Positions 2,253 through 17,682 of a DNA stretch of 64,000 nt are shown one piece after another (positions within the stretch are counted from its first letter, which is position 1; each line of letters begins with the position of its first letter). Location of the stretch: contig CASDPA010000001.1 in assembly GCA_949282255.1 (NCBI GenBank), positions 1 to 64,000 on the forward strand, written 5' to 3'. A program made the position numbers and the translations under genes. The DNA is from an uncultured Spirochaetales bacterium. Lineage in GTDB: Bacteria > Spirochaetota > Spirochaetia > Sphaerochaetales > Sphaerochaetaceae. The notes beneath the pieces were generated by a model. That model worked only from the letters and a program-made list of their open reading frames with translations, was not told where the DNA came from and did not search any database.

Positions 2253-2368
2253 ATCAACCTCCACTACTCCATTTTATCATGTAAAAGCATGCATATAATG
2301 AAATTCCGGAAAAAATATTTTTTCATACTCCCTGATTGTCAGGATTATCTTACCGCATAAGGGATTAC

Positions 2369-2490
2369 TTGGATTAAAGCAACATGAATGCAACATAATC
2401 AAATAAAAAACTACAAGATGCAACATAAAACCATGTTGAACAATAATCTTCTTTCCGCTATGTTGTATTTATTATTTTTTCTTGCAACAC
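2369..2490 (+). promoter_or_regulatory. Leader of the purine operon with repeated GCAACAT heptamers
   Basis: GCAACAT occurs at 2379-2385, 2390-2396 and 2420-2426, and its complement core ATGTTG at 2433-2438 and 2460-2465. The first two copies are 11 bases apart, one helical turn, and the third is 30 bases on. TTGGAT (2369-2374) and CATAAT (2394-2399) could be promoter boxes (spacing 19), placing two copies inside the promoter. The third copy and the first inverted one can also form a small hairpin. This looks like an operator array, or a structured leader, for control of the pur genes. No purine riboswitch consensus was found. Confidence 0.45.
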
Positions 2491-2504
2491 AACAAGGAGT
2501 ATCA

Positions 2505-2999
2505 ATGAAAAAGGTTGCCGTAATAATGGGAAGCGCATCAGATCTTCCCATAGCAGAGAAAGCCATCGAGCAGCTCGAATCCTTGAACGTACCATATGAA
2601 GTGCATGTATTCAGTGCGCACAGAACACCTTCCGAGGCCATGGGCTTTGCAAGCAAAGCGGACGATAACGGTATTGCAGCCATAATAGCGGTTGCAGGAA
2701 AGGCCGCACATCTTGCGGGGGTGCTCGCATCACATACCTCGGTTCCAGTAATTGGTATTCCGGCTCAAGGAAGCGACCTGGGAGGAATGGACGCGCTTTT
2801 GTCCACAGTCCAGATGCCACCGGGGATCCCTGTTGCCACAATGGCTATAAACGGAGGAAAGAACGCAGCTATTTTTGCAGCCCAGATCCTCTCGCTGTCC
2901 GAGCCAGGATTAAAGGAAAAACTTAAAACATTAAGGTCCGACATGACAAAAAATGTATTGGAGTCTAATAAGGCCATCGAGGAGAAATACAACAAATGA
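2505..2999 (+). CDS. purE: PurE, 5-aminoimidazole ribonucleotide carboxylase/mutase
   Basis: Makes carboxyaminoimidazole ribonucleotide (CAIR) in de novo purine synthesis. The 164 residues hold the family motifs: [12 protein letters not shown] near the N-terminus, SAHRTPSEA, a glycine/alanine stretch with AGKAAHLAG, and [18 protein letters not shown]. The ATG at 2505 follows AAGGAG by six bases; an upstream in-frame reading from 2388 would add about 39 low-complexity residues and is not accepted. The usual class I AGGAAHLPG is AGKAAHLAG here. No purK is present, so whether the substrate is N5-CAIR (class I) or AIR plus CO2 (class II-like) cannot be settled from this window. First gene of the operon, overlapping purC by four bases. 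Confidence 0.9.
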
Positions 3000-3715
3000 C
3001 CAAAGGCGCACAGCTTTACGAGGGCAAGGCCAAAAAGGTTTATGCCACGGAGGATCCGGAAGTCTGCATAGTTTCCTACAAGGATGATGCGACTGCTTTC
3101 AACGGCCTGAAAAAAGGCACCATCAGAGGAAAGGGTGCGATAAACAACAAGCTCACAAACTACCTGATGAAGAAGCTTGAAGCGGAAGCGGGTATTCCAA
3201 CCCACTACATAAACGAGCTTTCAGAAACCGATACGGAAGTGAAAAAAGTTAAGATAATTCCGCTTGAGGTGATTGTGCGCAACGTGATTGCAGGATCCCT
3301 TTCAAAAAGGCTTGGAGAACCGGAAGGAACAGAATTGGGATGTCCTGTGCTTGAATTCTGCTACAAGGATGACGAGCTCGGCGATCCGATGGTCAACGAT
3401 TATCATATCCTTGCAATGGGATGGGCGACAGAGGAAGAGCTTGATGCTATCAAGGACTATGCACTCAGAATCAATACATACCTAATGAATTTCTTCAAAG
3501 GCATAGGAATCGATTTGATCGACTTCAAGCTCGAATTCGGAAAGACAGCTGATGGGACAATAGTGCTCGCCGATGAGATCAGCCCGGATACCTGTCGTTT
3601 CTGGGACTCGAAAACCCACGAAAAACTCGACAAGGACCGCTTCAGAAGGAACCTCGGGGATGTCGAGGGTGCTTACAAGGAAATGCTCAAGAGGGTGTTC
3701 GGAGAAGAGAGATGA
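2996..3715 (+). CDS. purC: SAICAR synthase
   Basis: Phosphoribosylaminoimidazole-succinocarboxamide synthase joins aspartate to CAIR with ATP. The product (239 residues) has the normal length and motifs: [12 protein letters not shown] at the N-terminus (nucleotide-binding loop), [30 protein letters not shown] and the late [12 protein letters not shown]. Its ATG overlaps the purE stop (ATGA) and its own stop overlaps purF in the same way, implying translational coupling along the operon. No purB, needed for the next step, is in this window. Confidence 0.95.
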
Positions 3716-5157
3716 CAGGAAGTCTCCACGAAGAATGCGGCGTATTCGGCGTCGCACTCAACAACAAATGCGATGTGGCTCATCTTGCATATTACGGACT
3801 CTATGCCCTTCAGCACAGGGGTCAGGAGGGGGCTGGAATCGCAGTATGCGACGACGGCGTGATTTCCTGTCACAAGGACGTGGGACTTGTGAACGATGTG
3901 TTTTCCGCACATACACTTTCTTCCCTACCGCATGGCAAGATGGCCATCGGGCATGTCAGATACAGCACCACAGGAAAGGATCCGCGCACCAATGTCCAGC
4001 CCTTGGTGATCAACCACCTCAAAGGAAGGATGGCGATTGCGCACAACGGCAACCTCACGAACGATGCGGTGCTCAGAAGAAGCCTGGAGATGAACGGCTC
4101 CATCTTCCACACCACAAGCGACACGGAAGTGATCGCATACACGGTTACGAAGCACCGCCTGAAGGAAAGCTCCCTGGAATCCGCAGTCTCAAAGACGATG
4201 GACGAGATCAAGGGAGCTTTTTCATTGCTGATAATGTCCCCGCAAAAGCTTATTGCGGCACGCGATCCATGGGGCTTCCGCCCTCTCTCGCTTGCGTCTT
4301 TCAATGACGGGTATGTAATCAGCAGCGAAACCTGCGCATTCGATTCGATCGGCGCCAAATTCATACGCGATATAGAACCTGGGGAGATAATCACCATCAA
4401 GGATGGAAAGATATCAAGCGACAGGAGCCATTGCGGCAAGGAAAAACGAAGCCTCTGCGTATTCGAATTCATATATTTCGCCCGCCCAGATTCGATTATA
4501 GAAGGAGAAAGCGTGCAGATTGCCCGCCAGAGGGCGGGTGTGTTTTTGGCACTTGAGCATCCGGCACAGGCCGATGTCGTAATCGGAGTGCCCGACTCTG
4601 GAATCGATGCGGCGCTCGGATATGCAAAACAGTCCGGCATCCCCTACGGAGTCGGACTGATCAAGAACAAATATATTGGAAGGACATTCATACAGCCGGA
4701 GCAGACGATGAGGGAAACCGGAGTTAGGATAAAACTCAATCCGGTATCATCCACCATCAAAGGCAAAAGAGTCATACTTATAGACGATTCGATCGTACGA
4801 GGCACGACAAGCATGAGGATTGTAAAGCTTTTGAGGGATGCAGGAGCAAAAGAGGTCCATTTCCGCTCAGCAGCTCCGAAGTTCCTCTATCCCTGCTATT
4901 TCGGAACCGATATCGACTCGTCAGAGAACCTTTTTGCATACAAGCATACCGACGAGGAGATGAAGAAGATATTGGATGTGGATTCGCTTGGATTCTTGTC
5001 TGTGGACAACGTCGTAAAACTAACGCAGAACCCTTCATTAGGCTTTTGCACGGCCTGTTTCTCATCGCTATATCCATGCAAACCCGAGAACGGACATGTT
5101 AAAGACAAATATCAGAACCCCATCAAGGAGAAGGATAATGACCAGCAGTTTCTCTGA
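3712..5157 (+). CDS. purF: Amidophosphoribosyltransferase (Fe-S type)
   Basis: Catalyses the first committed step, PRPP plus glutamine to phosphoribosylamine. Of 481 residues, the first eight form a short propeptide and Cys9 (CGVFG) is the glutaminase nucleophile after processing. The phosphoribosyltransferase half carries [13 protein letters not shown], the PRPP loop. Cysteines 249, 395, 446 and 449 (C-x2-C near the end) are at places that match the four ligands of the 4Fe-4S cluster of Bacillus subtilis PurF, so this is the oxygen-labile type, which fits an anaerobe. Overlaps purC by four bases and purM by about 20. Confidence 0.95.
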
Positions 5158-13489: not shown

Positions 13490-14971
13490 TCAACGGGAAA
13501 ATAGGATCGACGGCTTGAAAGTGCAATCTCCGTCCAGGGGAAATATAGGCCGTGGAAGGTTTTTGTAGCTCAGGCGTGAAAACACCTCGTTGCTGCTGCC
13601 ATCGGTAAGCGCCATCAAAGATCTTTTTGCTATGGCGCGTATTTCCGGCTCAAGATAGCCGAGTTTGACAATGCACACCTTGAGAAAAGAAGGATCCACC
13701 CCGAGGGCTTCCATCATCTTGGGATCGTAGCAGCCGACATGGCGGTCGGTTACCACCACATCAATGCCTCCGATATCCAGAAGCGCCAGGGATACACCTG
13801 AAAATCCAGGCAAATCCCTTTTAACGGAAATAACTCTTGCCTTCGCTTTTATCGGAGTGCTGGTCTTCTTATCAAAACCGGCACCCAGCGAAACATCCAA
13901 GATATTCCCCTCACCTTTCTCAATCGCCTCAAGAACCACATGAGGATCGTATATCGCCTGATAGCATAGCGGAGGATCGAGGCTGCATAGCTCTTTATCC
14001 TTCAAAATCAGTTTCAGAAAATTCGTGACATCCTGGCTGGAGCCGGCCGTAGGATTATCTCCGCTGTCGGAGATGATAACAGGATACACACCACATTTGA
14101 TGCTCTCCTTAGCCTTTTCAAGGCATTCTGCAGGCTCGTATGTCTCACTATAAAACCTGAAATTGTCCCTATTTGACCAAAAGTCTTCTGCCAAGCGAAT
14201 GGCAAGAGCCTCAGCATGAGACTTTCCGGATGCGACAACAAGAGCCGTCACCCCGTTATCGCCGGAATCGGCCCAGGGAAATCCTAGAAAATAAGAGGCT
14301 GCGATAACACTCTTTTCCTCCATTTCCAGACACTTAAGTTTTTTTACAAGGCTTTTCATGGGTTCCGTATTGGTCTCGGATTGTTCGCCCGCAATGAGCA
14401 TCGGGATGCGGACCGCCGCCATATGGAGCTTTTCTCCGTTCATTGCCCTCAGCGTTATTTTAGCAGCGATGCATCCTGTTTCGTATTCGTCCGTGTGGGG
14501 CGCGCATTTGTATCCGATAAAACCATCAGCATATTCCAGCATGCCTGCAGTGACCGTCGCATGCATGTCCAGCGAACAGATTATTGGAATATCAGGACAG
14601 AGCGATCTTATTCTTGAAAGAAGGTCGCTTTCGCTTTTTCCTATCCCCTTCACTCTCATCGACCCATGAAGGGCCAGGCAGACAGCGTCGATGGGAAAAC
14701 TTTTCTCGAGAGCGGAAACAAGCTCATCACGCAAGACGGTATAGCATTGCTTGTCCCATTCCCCATTTGGAACCGCTCTGGCAAAAAGAGATGGAATAAC
14801 CTCGATACCGGCTTTTTCAAATGTCTTAATGATCCCGGTGATGGAATCATCATTATTCGAGCAAAGAAGATCCTTACCCCGCAATACATGAATATCATCC
14901 ATATTTGTTGTAATCGGATTGAACGTATCAGACTCGTGATGAAGACCACCGACAAAAACTCTTTTTCCCAT
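13490..14971 (-). CDS. M81 family metallopeptidase (MlrC/microcystinase C-like)
   Basis: A 493-residue member of the MlrC family, named for a zinc enzyme that cleaves linear microcystin in Sphingomonas; most members have unknown substrates. The N-terminal domain begins GGLHHESDTFNP, with ALHGSMRVKG, SLDMHATVT and YKCAPHTDEYETG, where the metal-binding Asp and His residues lie; the C-terminal domain has SDSGDNPTAGSSQD. Hydrolysis of small modified peptides or amides is plausible. No ribosome binding site precedes the ATG; TATCAT lies six bases ahead, as at other leaderless starts here. It lies only 39 bases after the phosphoribosyltransferase gene on the same strand and could be cotranscribed with that island. 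Confidence 0.8.
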   Translation of the reverse strand: MGKRVFVGGLHHESDTFNPITTNMDDIHVLRGKDLLCSNNDDSITGIIKTFEKAGIEVIPSLFARAVPNGEWDKQCYTVLRDELVSALEKSFPIDAVCLALHGSMRVKGIGKSESDLLSRIRSLCPDIPIICSLDMHATVTAGMLEYADGFIGYKCAPHTDEYETGCIAAKITLRAMNGEKLHMAAVRIPMLIAGEQSETNTEPMKSLVKKLKCLEMEEKSVIAASYFLGFPWADSGDNGVTALVVASGKSHAEALAIRLAEDFWSNRDNFRFYSETYEPAECLEKAKESIKCGVYPVIISDSGDNPTAGSSQDVTNFLKLILKDKELCSLDPPLCYQAIYDPHVVLEAIEKGEGNILDVSLGAGFDKKTSTPIKAKARVISVKRDLPGFSGVSLALLDIGGIDVVVTDRHVGCYDPKMMEALGVDPSFLKVCIVKLGYLEPEIRAIAKRSLMALTDGSSNEVFSRLSYKNLPRPIFPLDGDCTFKPSILFSR

Positions 14972-15010: not shown

Positions 15011-15583
15011 TCAAAAGCTTTCCAAAGAAAAGGAATCGTCATCATCAAAATCAAGTATTTCCCGATTCATACGACTAAACAATGAACTTACAGCAGCAAC
15101 ATATGCTTCTTTACATTTTCCATAAAAAGGCAGCATTGTCTTTGAATTGAAATTGAGATAATTATTATTTGCAAACTCATAAATATAGGAATCATTTTTC
15201 CAATAACTACAGGAAAACTGATTGATTCCCAACTCAAAAATAAATACTTCCTCAGCTCCCTTGGATTTAAGCACATCCACACATTCCATCAGAGTTGCAC
15301 CCGTAGTGATGATATCATCTATTAAAATGATGTTTTGACCAGAAAGATCTCCGTCATAAGCATAAGCTCCCTTCACATTCTTTCTGCGATCTTCTTCTGA
15401 ATAGAATTTATTATCAGAATATTTTTTTATGCATTTGAAATTCATACTCAAATCATTTAGTTCGAGACTGTTGCAAACAGATGGGGTGATACTCTCAAAT
15501 TTATTTTTTTTACCAGGCTTGTCAGGAACATTAGTAAATCCATGTATTTCAAATCCGGATTTTACAATAAAGTCTTTGACCAT
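15011..15583 (-). CDS. ComF-like phosphoribosyltransferase of the DprA island
   Basis: A 190-residue type I phosphoribosyltransferase. The PRPP-binding signature NIILIDDIITTGATL is clear, with the flexible-loop region KNVKGAYAY ahead of it and TNVPDKPG where the N-terminal strand of ComF-like enzymes ends. The canonical zinc-ribbon start of ComF is missing. In the same frame homologous-looking sequence continues upstream of the ATG (CGKFDFFFSNLFTEM), where it overlaps the next gene in another frame, so the domain start is probably lost or reached by a frameshift. The C-terminus is acidic (DFDDDDS). Base composition looks AT-richer than the pur genes. Substrate unknown; neighbours suggest nucleotide or DNA-linked chemistry, possibly defence. 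Confidence 0.75.
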   Translation of the reverse strand: MVKDFIVKSGFEIHGFTNVPDKPGKKNKFESITPSVCNSLELNDLSMNFKCIKKYSDNKFYSEEDRRKNVKGAYAYDGDLSGQNIILIDDIITTGATLMECVDVLKSKGAEEVFIFELGINQFSCSYWKNDSYIYEFANNNYLNFNSKTMLPFYGKCKEAYVAAVSSLFSRMNREILDFDDDDSFSLESF

Positions 15584-16248
15584 CTCTGTAAAAAGATTTG
15601 AAAAGAAAAAATCAAACTTCCCACATAGCTGGCTGCTTTCTTATTAACGTATAAAGAGCGCGAATATACGTCTATTATGTGCATATAATGGTTAGATCCA
15701 TAGTATCTTCCGGCAGCAACAACAGAGACTGAATATCCATCATGGGAGTATATGCTTTGTATAACTCTGCCTTTCGGATTATCTTTTGTTTCAATAGACT
15801 GTTCCCCAATGAAAAGGGCAACCTTGTCGGCGAGAATCCTATTCAATTCCGAAAGAGACCTGCAGATTACATCTGAACAGAAACCGGCTTCTCTTTCATA
15901 TGACAAATAGCATGTATCTTTTATATGAACAGAAAAGCAAGTATATGACCGGGTGTTTTTCAAGAATTCAAAATCATCTGAGACATACGCAGTCAAATTA
16001 TATAGCAATCCGGTTTTCTCCAATACGGTCTTATGAAGCTTAACATTTGGATATTGGAACTCCCACGGTATGAATTCAACATTGCCGCATCCATATAGAT
16101 CTTCATATATTTCCTTTTTCCTTGTGATGACAAAACACTTGTATTTTTTTGCAAATTCAGAAATCAGGCTAATTTCAGAAAGATTTTTTCCTTTGGAGAA
16201 AAATGAATCGAGATAGAAAACAAATACTCCAATATGGTCAGGATTCAT
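15562..16248 (-). CDS. Rossmann/HAD-like protein of the DprA island
   Basis: About 228 residues starting MNPDHIGVFVFYLDSF. The start at 16248 overlaps the last 11 bases of the DprA gene and has AAGGAAG some 12 bases ahead; the longer frame from 16332 lies wholly inside DprA. The order of elements, a hydrophobic strand with Asp, then CFVITRKKE, AYVSDDFEFLKNT and a final SDVICRSLSELNRIL, resembles a HAD-type fold, but a full DxD motif is not visible, so catalysis is doubtful. The last 20 or so residues are hydrophobic and lie where the other frame encodes phosphoribosyltransferase-like sequence. It may be the first half of a frameshifted HAD-phosphoribosyltransferase fusion. Fold assignment is inference. 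Confidence 0.55.
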   Translation of the reverse strand: MNPDHIGVFVFYLDSFFSKGKNLSEISLISEFAKKYKCFVITRKKEIYEDLYGCGNVEFIPWEFQYPNVKLHKTVLEKTGLLYNLTAYVSDDFEFLKNTRSYTCFSVHIKDTCYLSYEREAGFCSDVICRSLSELNRILADKVALFIGEQSIETKDNPKGRVIQSIYSHDGYSVSVVAAGRYYGSNHYMHIIDVYSRSLYVNKKAASYVGSLIFSFQIFLQRWSKTLL

Positions 16249-17470
16249 TGCCACAGTATTCTTCCTTTTCAGCCACAACGATATCATCCATGCCAGGATC
16301 TTCCAACAAACCAGGGATCTCCGGTTCCACAATCTTTTTATATACGTTCTTCTCTGAGAGCTTTTCTATTATTTCCTTTGGTGTCCTAACAGCATAAGCT
16401 CCCTTCTGGATATATTTTTTAGGCCAGAGCAATGTCGGCTTATTCACAACATTCTGAGGAATAAGGACCACCCTGCCCTGTTTCAGGGCGAATGTCGCCT
16501 GCTTGAGGGCTCCTGATGTCTCTCCCGCCTCCATGATCACGGTAGCTAGAGATATGCCGCTCATAACTCCATTTCTTAAAGGGAAAAACCATCTCTCGGT
16601 TTTCATCGAAGGCGGAAATTGGGAAATAACCAGCCCCTTTTTCTCGATTTCAAGCTGAACTTCCTTATTTTCATTTGGATAATACTGATTGAGATTCGTT
16701 CCTATCACCGCAATTGTATTGAAATTATTATCCAATGCAGTCCTATGTGCTGTAACATCTATGCCTTTCGCTAGTCCGGATACGATGATTATCCCATTCT
16801 TTCCCAAGGTCAAAGCAACACGTTCAGTGTTTTCTTTTGCTTCTTGGGAAGCTTCCCTGCTGCCGACAAGCGCAACAGTACGTCCATCATAAAGCAACGA
16901 CTTGTTGCCTCTGAGATAGAGGAACCTTGGGGCCTCTTCTGTTGCCGCCAAAAGCTTCGGATAATCCGAACCGTTGATCTTGATTATCTCATCATCCGCT
17001 TTCAGCTTCTCAAATTGTACTTTTGCATAAGAATAAGAAGAAGATAGCTTCTCATAGGTAATATTAAAGAAAGATGTCCATGCATCTAAATTGGAAGGTA
17101 TAGGATCTGATATATCGTGTTTTTTTGAAAACTCCTCAAACTCAGGAACAAGTTTCTTCTCTGCAATACCAAGCGCATGCATGAGGGAAGCAAAATTAAG
17201 GGCTTCATGTTTTGTCGGAGTATCGATTATAAACATCTTTTTATCCTCGCTTACATAATCAATCGCATCTTCCGTAAAAATTGCCAATTCTTCTTTTCTC
17301 CGTTTCAATTCATCAATATGGAAAACCGTTCCAGAAGAGTTTTTTTTCAGAGGTGTGATCTTGCCGTTCTGTATCAGCTTGTTAAGCCTCTGAACAGTTA
17401 TGCCAAGATATTCAGCAGCTTCTTTTGAAAACAAAAGCTGGGAAGCCAAACCAGATTCATCGTGATTCAT
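16238..17470 (-). CDS. DprA/Smf-like protein with N-terminal HTH, putative defence protein
   Basis: A 410-residue protein. Residues about 13-62 form an excisionase/MerR-type helix-turn-helix (SKEAAEYLGITVQRLNKLIQNGKI). Residues 63-160 are unassigned. Residues about 164-375 are a DprA Rossmann domain with FLYLRGN, VALVGSRE, SGLAKGID (231-238), NQYYPNEN, FFPLRNGVMSGIS and the late TSGALKQATFALKQGR. Housekeeping DprA protects incoming single-stranded DNA and loads RecA; this form differs by its added HTH and unassigned middle region and by standing with a HAD-like and a phosphoribosyltransferase gene, not with topA or rnhB. It has no ribosome binding site; TTGACA and TACCAT place a transcript start close to the ATG. 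Likely horizontally acquired. Confidence 0.8.
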   Translation of the reverse strand: MNHDESGLASQLLFSKEAAEYLGITVQRLNKLIQNGKITPLKKNSSGTVFHIDELKRRKEELAIFTEDAIDYVSEDKKMFIIDTPTKHEALNFASLMHALGIAEKKLVPEFEEFSKKHDISDPIPSNLDAWTSFFNITYEKLSSSYSYAKVQFEKLKADDEIIKINGSDYPKLLAATEEAPRFLYLRGNKSLLYDGRTVALVGSREASQEAKENTERVALTLGKNGIIIVSGLAKGIDVTAHRTALDNNFNTIAVIGTNLNQYYPNENKEVQLEIEKKGLVISQFPPSMKTERWFFPLRNGVMSGISLATVIMEAGETSGALKQATFALKQGRVVLIPQNVVNKPTLLWPKKYIQKGAYAVRTPKEIIEKLSEKNVYKKIVEPEIPGLLEDPGMDDIVVAEKEEYCGNES

Positions 17471-17476
17471 GAGTAA

Positions 17477-17506
17477 ATGGTAATGTCAAGGGTTTAATAT
17501 TGTCAA
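17477..17506 (-). promoter_or_regulatory. Promoter of the DprA island, leaderless type
   Basis: On the reverse strand TTGACA (17501-17506), an 18-base spacer and TACCAT (17477-17482) end six bases before the DprA start codon. No Shine-Dalgarno sequence lies between, so the mRNA would begin at or next to the ATG. Confidence 0.55.
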
Positions 17507-17523
17507 CTCTTATAATTCAGACG

Positions 17524-17602
17524 CTGGAACAAGTACAAAAAAATAAGGGACATCCTCTAATTTTATTCATGGGGTAGTATGGTGAAATGGATGTCCCTTA
17601 TT
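17524..17602. repeat. CTGGAACAAGTACAA motif with perfect 14-bp inverted repeat
   Basis: AATAAGGGACATCC (17542-17555) and its exact complement (17589-17602) flank a 33-base loop. On the reverse strand the right arm runs into a T-rich stretch, so it might end transcription of the metal ATPase. Immediately to the left is the 15-base motif that also occurs at 4-18. The shared layout suggests a small repeated element at the edge of the DprA island. Confidence 0.5.
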
Positions 17603-17682
17603 GATTTATGTTTTAATGCTATCACCTGATAAAAATTTAATGGTGAAGATTATGTGTTGATTGTTTGTAAAACGCACATATG

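What the first reader, a model, noticed from the sequence alone, without database searches (positions are those of the whole stretch)
15011..17506. HTH-DprA, HAD-like and phosphoribosyltransferase island, a candidate defence or DNA-modification system
A DprA-type protein with an added excisionase-like HTH stands in an overlapping operon with a Rossmann/HAD-like protein and a ComF-like phosphoribosyltransferase, under its own promoter. The island lies between the purine operon with its MlrC gene and a metal ATPase, is bordered on one side by a repeat also found beside a broken restriction gene, and looks AT-richer than its surroundings. DprA plus phosphoribosyltransferase suggests recognition of foreign DNA combined with making or attaching a nucleotide-like molecule. 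I do not recall this exact trio as experimentally characterised.
Basis: partly seen in the sequence, partly recalled or inferred. Interest (0 to 1): 0.75.

Follow-up and report, generated by a model that had tools for sequence, protein, structure and literature searches.

The report
ShosTA toxin-antitoxin operon, toxin gene broken
The island is a horizontally acquired copy of ShosTA, a known bacterial anti-phage toxin-antitoxin system, whose antitoxin gene is intact but whose toxin gene is split by a frame change, so the supposed three-gene system is really two genes, one of them damaged.

Summary
The three ORFs exist at the stated place and the stretch is AT-rich, but they are not a new trio. 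The DprA gene is a ShosA antitoxin with an extra N-terminal HTH (PADLOC ShosA E=2e-70). The "HAD-like" and "ComF-like" ORFs are two halves of one ShosT toxin. In eight relatives it is a single ORF of about 415 codons. In the window the frame changes between about 15628 and 15650, inside the phosphoribosyltransferase domain. The model of the intact relative matches solved ShosT structures across both domains. Among 139 genomes of the family, HTH-ShosA occurs in 15 and this ShosT in the same 15. ShosA is open in 15/15, ShosT disrupted in 7/15 by different lesions, including an IS200/IS605 insertion (Fisher p=0.006). A close relative has the empty site: metal ATPase and MlrC genes 198 bp apart. 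The bordering "repeat" is a hairpin also present at that empty site and single-copy in the genome. Mechanism (literature): PRPP-using ShosT disturbs purine pools and damages DNA; ShosA counteracts it; phage infection tips the balance. Here the locus is probably a decaying remnant with an orphan antitoxin. Novel features are modest: the HTH on ShosA and a HAD domain lacking its catalytic aspartate in 13 of 15 copies.

The parts
16238..17470 (-). shosA: HTH-DprA antitoxin, 410 aa, intact
   Evidence: PADLOC ShosA PDLC03961 E=2.1e-70, PF02481 E=3.3e-61; open in all 15 homologues; Foldseek hits DprA 3uqz and E. coli ShosA 8zva
17291..17425 (-). N-terminal HTH_17/excisionase-type helix-turn-helix of ShosA (aa 16-60)
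   Evidence: PF12728 E=4e-5, just under its cut-off; TIGR01764 E=4e-4; invariant residues across 9 homologues
16385..16990 (-). DprA Rossmann domain (aa 161-362)
   Evidence: PF02481 match
15562..16248 (-). first frame of the broken shosT: HAD-like domain plus the N-terminal part of the phosphoribosyltransferase domain; overlaps the shosA stop by 11 nt
   Evidence: 73% identical to part of a single 442-codon frame in G034; homology in this frame ends about 15628; fold from the relative's model: HAD domain 3-147
15628..15650 (-). approximate place of the frame change in shosT, inside the phosphoribosyltransferase domain
   Evidence: profile matches: first frame to 15628, second frame from 15646; phosphoribosyltransferase domain spans model residues 154-347, break near 205-209
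15011..15646 (-). second frame of the broken shosT: remainder of the ComF-like phosphoribosyltransferase, with PRPP motif (ATG-initiated ORF 15583-15011)
   Evidence: PF00156 E=2e-8, PADLOC PsyrT 1.7e-10 and ShosT 9e-9; 80% identical to G034 in one continuous frame
17477..17506 (-). promoter-like site of the operon (TTGACA-18-TACCAT)
   Evidence: same block in G034; consensus match only
17537..17607 (-). hairpin followed by a T run at the end of the metal ATPase gene; not part of the island
   Evidence: conserved in G003 (no island) and G034

Best explanation
The island is a ShosTA-type toxin-antitoxin (abortive-infection) operon inserted between a metal ATPase gene and an MlrC gene. Shown here: the first gene is a ShosA with an added N-terminal HTH; the other two ORFs are fragments of one ShosT (HAD-like domain plus ComF-like PRPP-binding phosphoribosyltransferase) separated by a frame change in the phosphoribosyltransferase domain. 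Inferred from the literature on relatives: intact ShosT uses PRPP, disturbs purine/nucleotide pools and so damages DNA and stops growth; ShosA, a DNA-binding DprA-like protein, counteracts this; a phage factor upsets the balance so that the infected cell stops. Inferred here: the HTH lets this ShosA bind and repress its own promoter. In this genome ShosT is most likely inactive, so what remains is an orphan antitoxin, perhaps only a relic, perhaps one that protects against other incoming ShosT.
For: PADLOC ShosA E=2e-70 and ShosT/PsyrT hits. One continuous toxin frame in 8 relatives. AlphaFold2 model of the intact G034 toxin: Foldseek's top three PDB hits are ShosT 8zvd/8zvc/8zvb (E to 1.2e-9), then H. 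pylori ComF; VIA-align ShosT 8zvc Z=13.7 over 295 residues (rmsd 16.9, so the two domains are oriented differently), ComF 7p0h Z=16.0 for 154-347, HAD enzymes Z about 13 for 3-147. ShosA model hits DprA 3uqz and ShosA 8zva. The same 15 of 139 genomes carry both genes. ShosA is never broken, ShosT broken in 7 of 15 by different lesions (Fisher p=0.006), as expected if ShosT is costly and ShosA protective. Empty site in G003. Phage phiOH2 and filamentous phage PfAC02a carry the pair; the latter is annotated ShosT (HAD/PRTase) and ShosA. Literature: Rousset 2022 PMC9122126, Russell and Mulvey PMC4670107, review PMC12593503 summarising Pu et al. 2025.
Against: Sequence similarity of the toxin to named ShosT proteins is confined to the phosphoribosyltransferase part and the stretch just before it; the HAD link rests on predicted structure. 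Model confidence is moderate (mean pLDDT 76, pTM 0.75, 7-sequence alignment). The HAD nucleophile aspartate is replaced in 13 of 15 copies, so a ShosT pyrophosphatase step may not apply. The original mechanistic paper (Pu 2025) was not in the library and was read only through a review. No toxicity or phage-defence data exist for this subtype. The break could be an assembly error.
Confidence: 0.86

Rival explanations
1. The frame change is an assembly or sequencing error and the organism carries an intact, working two-gene ShosTA.
For: Only one lesion in the gene and fairly low dN/dS on both sides of it (0.20 and 0.26); the genome is a 51-contig draft.
Against: ShosA genes of about the same length in the same kind of drafts show no lesion in 15 of 15, whereas ShosT shows lesions in 7 of 15, including an IS200/IS605 insertion that cannot be a base-calling error.
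Confidence: 0.12
2. The two toxin ORFs are functional as separate proteins, or are joined by programmed frameshifting, giving a real three-component or regulated system.
For: Both pieces keep purifying-looking substitution patterns; ORF3 has its own ATG; in several relatives the lesion also lies in or near the phosphoribosyltransferase part.
Against: The split cuts through the phosphoribosyltransferase domain, leaving ORF3 without its first strands and helix; eight relatives need no frameshift; no canonical X XXY YYZ slippery heptamer in the zero frame around the break (read from the sequence); lesions in relatives differ in kind and place.
Confidence: 0.05
3. It is a housekeeping competence pair (DprA and ComF).
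For: DprA and ComF-like folds; no better ComF elsewhere in the genome.
Against: Present in 15 of 139 family genomes and absent from the same site in a close relative; another DprA exists on contig C19 and in most relatives; best profile is ShosA, and the dprA equivalog cut-off is missed (187.6 against 191.15 bits).
Confidence: 0.01
4. It makes or attaches a nucleotide-like molecule to DNA.
For: A phosphoribosyltransferase next to a DNA-binding protein; Russell and Mulvey speculated on PRPP addition to DNA for RqlH.
Against: No such activity is reported for ShosTA in the papers found; the reported effect is on purine metabolism and DNA integrity.
Confidence: 0.02

Closest known systems
ShosTA (E. 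coli APEC O1 structures 8zva-8zvd; Pf phage PfAC02a; PADLOC ShosA/ShosT)
   Same: DprA-like ShosA adjacent to a HAD-like plus phosphoribosyltransferase ShosT; toxin fold matches ShosT over both domains; carried on mobile or accessory DNA.
   Different: ShosA gains an N-terminal HTH; ShosA comes first and overlaps ShosT by 11 nt (in PfAC02a ShosT comes first); HAD nucleophile lost in most copies; no C-terminal Cys-rich part as in PfAC02a; window copy of ShosT is broken.
P2-type DprA plus phosphoribosyltransferase system (Rousset 2022; Burkholderia phage Mana, E. coli plasmids)
   Same: DprA gene followed by, and overlapping, a phosphoribosyltransferase gene; the 303-aa PADLOC ShosA profile is the best hit of the window protein.
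   Different: Those toxins are about 210-225 aa without a HAD-like part.
PsyrTA / RqlHI
   Same: DprA-like antitoxin and a toxin whose phosphoribosyltransferase domain is the toxic part.
   Different: PsyrT/RqlH has a RecQ-like helicase in place of the HAD-like domain, and RqlI has its HTH at the C-terminus.
Geobacillus/Thermus phage phiOH2 genes 32-31 and phrog_38708/phrog_16932
   Same: Same HTH-DprA architecture (46% identity over 89% of ShosA) followed by a 401-aa toxin relative.
   Different: Phage-borne; the PHROG families have no assigned function.

Membership tests
ShosTA | DprA-like antitoxin of the ShosA family | tested here: met
   PDLC03961 E=2.1e-70, all 9 homologues scanned match; Foldseek 8zva E=5.6e-14
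ShosTA | Adjacent toxin with phosphoribosyltransferase domain and PRPP motif | tested here: met
   PF00156, ShosT and PsyrT profiles; invariant DD..TTG.T motif in A1
ShosTA | ShosT architecture: HAD-like domain fused to the phosphoribosyltransferase in one protein | tested here: met
   Met in 8 intact relatives and in the model of one of them; in the window itself the frame is broken
ShosTA | HAD catalytic DxD motif kept (seen in PfAC02a ShosT; whether it defines the family is not known) | tested here: inconclusive
   Nucleophile position is not Asp in 13 of 15 copies, DxD only in G020 and G021; assigned by motif alignment, and its importance for ShosT is not established here
ShosTA | Toxin harmful alone, neutralised by antitoxin | not testable with these tools
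   Indirect only: toxin broken in 7/15, antitoxin in 0/15
ShosTA | Anti-phage activity | not testable with these tools
   Published for relatives (PMC9122126)
PsyrTA/RqlHI | RecQ-like helicase domain in the toxin | tested here: not met
   PADLOC PsyrT matches only its C-terminal phosphoribosyltransferase part, about 530-685 of 689; no helicase in the Pfam scan
Competence DprA/ComF | Core-genome conservation and DprA equivalog score | tested here: not met
   15 of 139 genomes, empty site in G003; 187.6 against cut-off 191.15 bits

The most novel reading that the evidence does not exclude
A distinct ShosTA subtype in which the antitoxin carries its own DNA-binding HTH for autoregulation and the HAD half of the toxin has become a non-catalytic regulatory domain; toxin genes are repeatedly knocked out while the orphan HTH-ShosA is kept because it protects against incoming ShosTA-bearing elements.
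Probability: 0.2. Interest if true: 0.5.

Novelty: new variant of a known kind. Interest (0 to 1): 0.3.

Why it matters
It removes a supposed new three-gene defence system and replaces it with a known one in a new host group. The repeated, varied inactivation of ShosT beside an always intact ShosA is a natural experiment in favour of toxin-antitoxin behaviour in the HTH subtype, and the loss of the HAD nucleophile lets one ask whether the HAD activity is needed for ShosT toxicity.

Tried and rejected
A three-protein system: rejected because relatives have one toxin ORF. A T run near 15606 as the place of the frame change: rejected, the profile match places it between 15628 and 15650. Programmed frameshifting: no canonical slippery heptamer, and intact relatives do not need it. 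Mobile-element border repeat: the 212-bp spacer and hairpin arm have no further meaningful copies, and the hairpin exists at the empty site. Competence role: rejected by distribution. Searches of plasmids and phages with the HAD-like half alone found nothing; the viral-contig scan with the ShosA alignment found nothing. phmmer of the Pf-phage ShosT returned only HAD enzymes at E up to 1e-5, so the ShosT structures were reached through folds. PADLOC hits of two other window ORFs (mad3/mad8, IetA) look like generic ATPase matches. The G047 toxin match (E=7e-4) was taken as spurious.

Full report
What is there. The minus strand holds three ORFs: 17470-16238 (410 aa), 16248-15562 (228 aa from its ATG) and 15583-15011 (190 aa). 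The first has an HTH_17/excisionase-like N-terminus and a DprA domain (PF02481 E=3e-61); the third has a phosphoribosyltransferase motif; the second matched nothing in Pfam or PADLOC. GC is 41% for the DprA gene and 34% for the rest, against 48% in both neighbours.

Two genes, not three. A search of 197 related genomes with the second ORF found relatives in which the match lies within one open frame of about 415-480 codons that also contains the third ORF's sequence. The closest, G034 (an uncultured Spirochaetales bacterium, L019), has the same neighbours, 85% identity in the DprA protein and one unbroken toxin frame, 73-80% identical to the two window pieces. With a profile of seven intact toxins (A1), the window matches in one frame down to 15628 and in another from 15646. 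The break therefore lies within about twenty bases there. In the predicted structure of the G034 toxin (pLDDT 76, pTM 0.75) this is near residues 205-209, inside the ComF-like phosphoribosyltransferase domain (154-347). Splitting there would leave neither piece with a complete domain. Intact copies exist in G034, G012, G024, G010, G007, G095, G087 and G201.

Which system. PADLOC names the DprA protein ShosA (E=2e-70) and the toxin ShosT/PsyrT. Foldseek of the toxin model ranks the three solved ShosT structures 8zvd, 8zvc and 8zvb first, then H. pylori ComF. VIA-align gives ShosT 8zvc Z=13.7 over 295 residues; the large rmsd (16.9) means the two domains sit differently. Each domain alone matches well: ComF Z=16.0, HAD enzymes Z about 13. 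The ShosA model matches DprA 3uqz and E. coli ShosA 8zva. The filamentous phage PfAC02a carries a HAD/PRTase protein annotated ShosT next to ShosA (PMC11878078). Phage phiOH2 carries the same HTH-DprA plus toxin pair as the window.

Distribution and decay. In 139 genomes of the family, HTH-ShosA (57% identity or more over about 400 aa) is present in 15; the next DprA proteins are at 40% identity or less and match from about residue 64 on, without the HTH. The two-domain toxin is in exactly the same 15. ShosA is open in all 15. ShosT is disrupted in 7: frame changes in the window, G021 and G075; stop codons in G032 (TGA) and G025 (TAA); an IS200/IS605 element with Y1 transposase and TnpB inside the gene in G200; and fragments on two contigs, one beside a transposase gene, in G020. 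Seven of 15 against 0 of 15 gives Fisher p=0.006. Near-identical pairs (G020/G021 and G075/G201, 95% DNA identity) differ in lesion or intactness, so the losses look recent and separate. Base-calling errors should hit both genes alike, which argues that most lesions are real. G020 may in part be an assembly break.

Accessory insertion. G003, whose flanking proteins are closer to the window's (85% and 83%) than G034's are (75% and 76%), has the metal ATPase and MlrC genes 198 bp apart with nothing between. The spacer there keeps the ATPase-side hairpin AAGGGACATCC...GGATGTCCCTT, so that 'repeat' is a terminator-like feature of the old locus (RNA fold z=-4.7), not an island border. In the window the MlrC gene now starts 39 nt after the toxin stop. 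A family-wide profile (phrog_38708) finds the HTH type in two genera of this family only, among 393 genomes of the phylum; the ninth genome found matches only outside the HTH. This is consistent with horizontal arrival.

How it most likely works. From the literature: DprA plus phosphoribosyltransferase protects E. coli from T7 and lambda, with DprA homologues acting as antitoxins in shosTA, syrTA and rqlHI (PMC9122126). The phosphoribosyltransferase domain is the toxic part of RqlH, and a D663A change in its PRPP pocket removes most of the effect (PMC4670107). ShosT is described as a phosphoribosyl transferase and pyrophosphatase that disturbs purine metabolism and damages DNA, ShosA binds DNA and counteracts it, and T7 Gp0.7 is a trigger (Pu et al. 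2025, as summarised in PMC12593503; the original was not held). The same is inferred for intact members of this subtype. In this subtype the HAD nucleophile aspartate is replaced (by Y, F, H, C or N, and so on) in 13 of 15 copies (assignment by motif alignment), so the HAD half may be structural. In the window the toxin is probably dead and ShosA an orphan antitoxin.

Substitution pattern. Window against G034: dN/dS 0.07 for ShosA, 0.20 before and 0.26 after the break in ShosT. ShosA is under stronger constraint; the toxin has not visibly decayed beyond one lesion, so the break is young or an assembly error (about 12%).

Verdict. A real, correctly located feature, wrongly parsed as three genes. 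It is a ShosTA variant with an HTH-bearing antitoxin and, here, a broken toxin. Interest is modest.

Noticed in passing
L114 (G200:C30:12900-17154), about 2350-4100: An IS200/IS605 element with Y1 transposase and TnpB interrupts a relative's ShosT, very near the position of the frame change in the window.
   Followed up: partly
G000:C19:7941-8780 (L002): The genome's second DprA is divergent (PF02481 63-64 bits) and appears to lack the SGLAxGID motif kept by ShosA; the ORF beside it looks like an alanyl-tRNA synthetase.
   Followed up: partly
13490-14971: The MlrC-family gene is patchy (11 of 48 genomes of the genus) and in the window now starts 39 nt downstream of the toxin stop, so it may be co-transcribed with shosTA.
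   Followed up: partly
17537-17607: Long-looped hairpin with T run, conserved at the end of the metal ATPase gene in G000, G003 and G034.
   Followed up: yes
15011-16248: The toxin's synonymous divergence from G034 (dS 0.39-0.71) is lower than ShosA's (1.10), which might reflect composition, or recombination of toxin segments.
   Followed up: no
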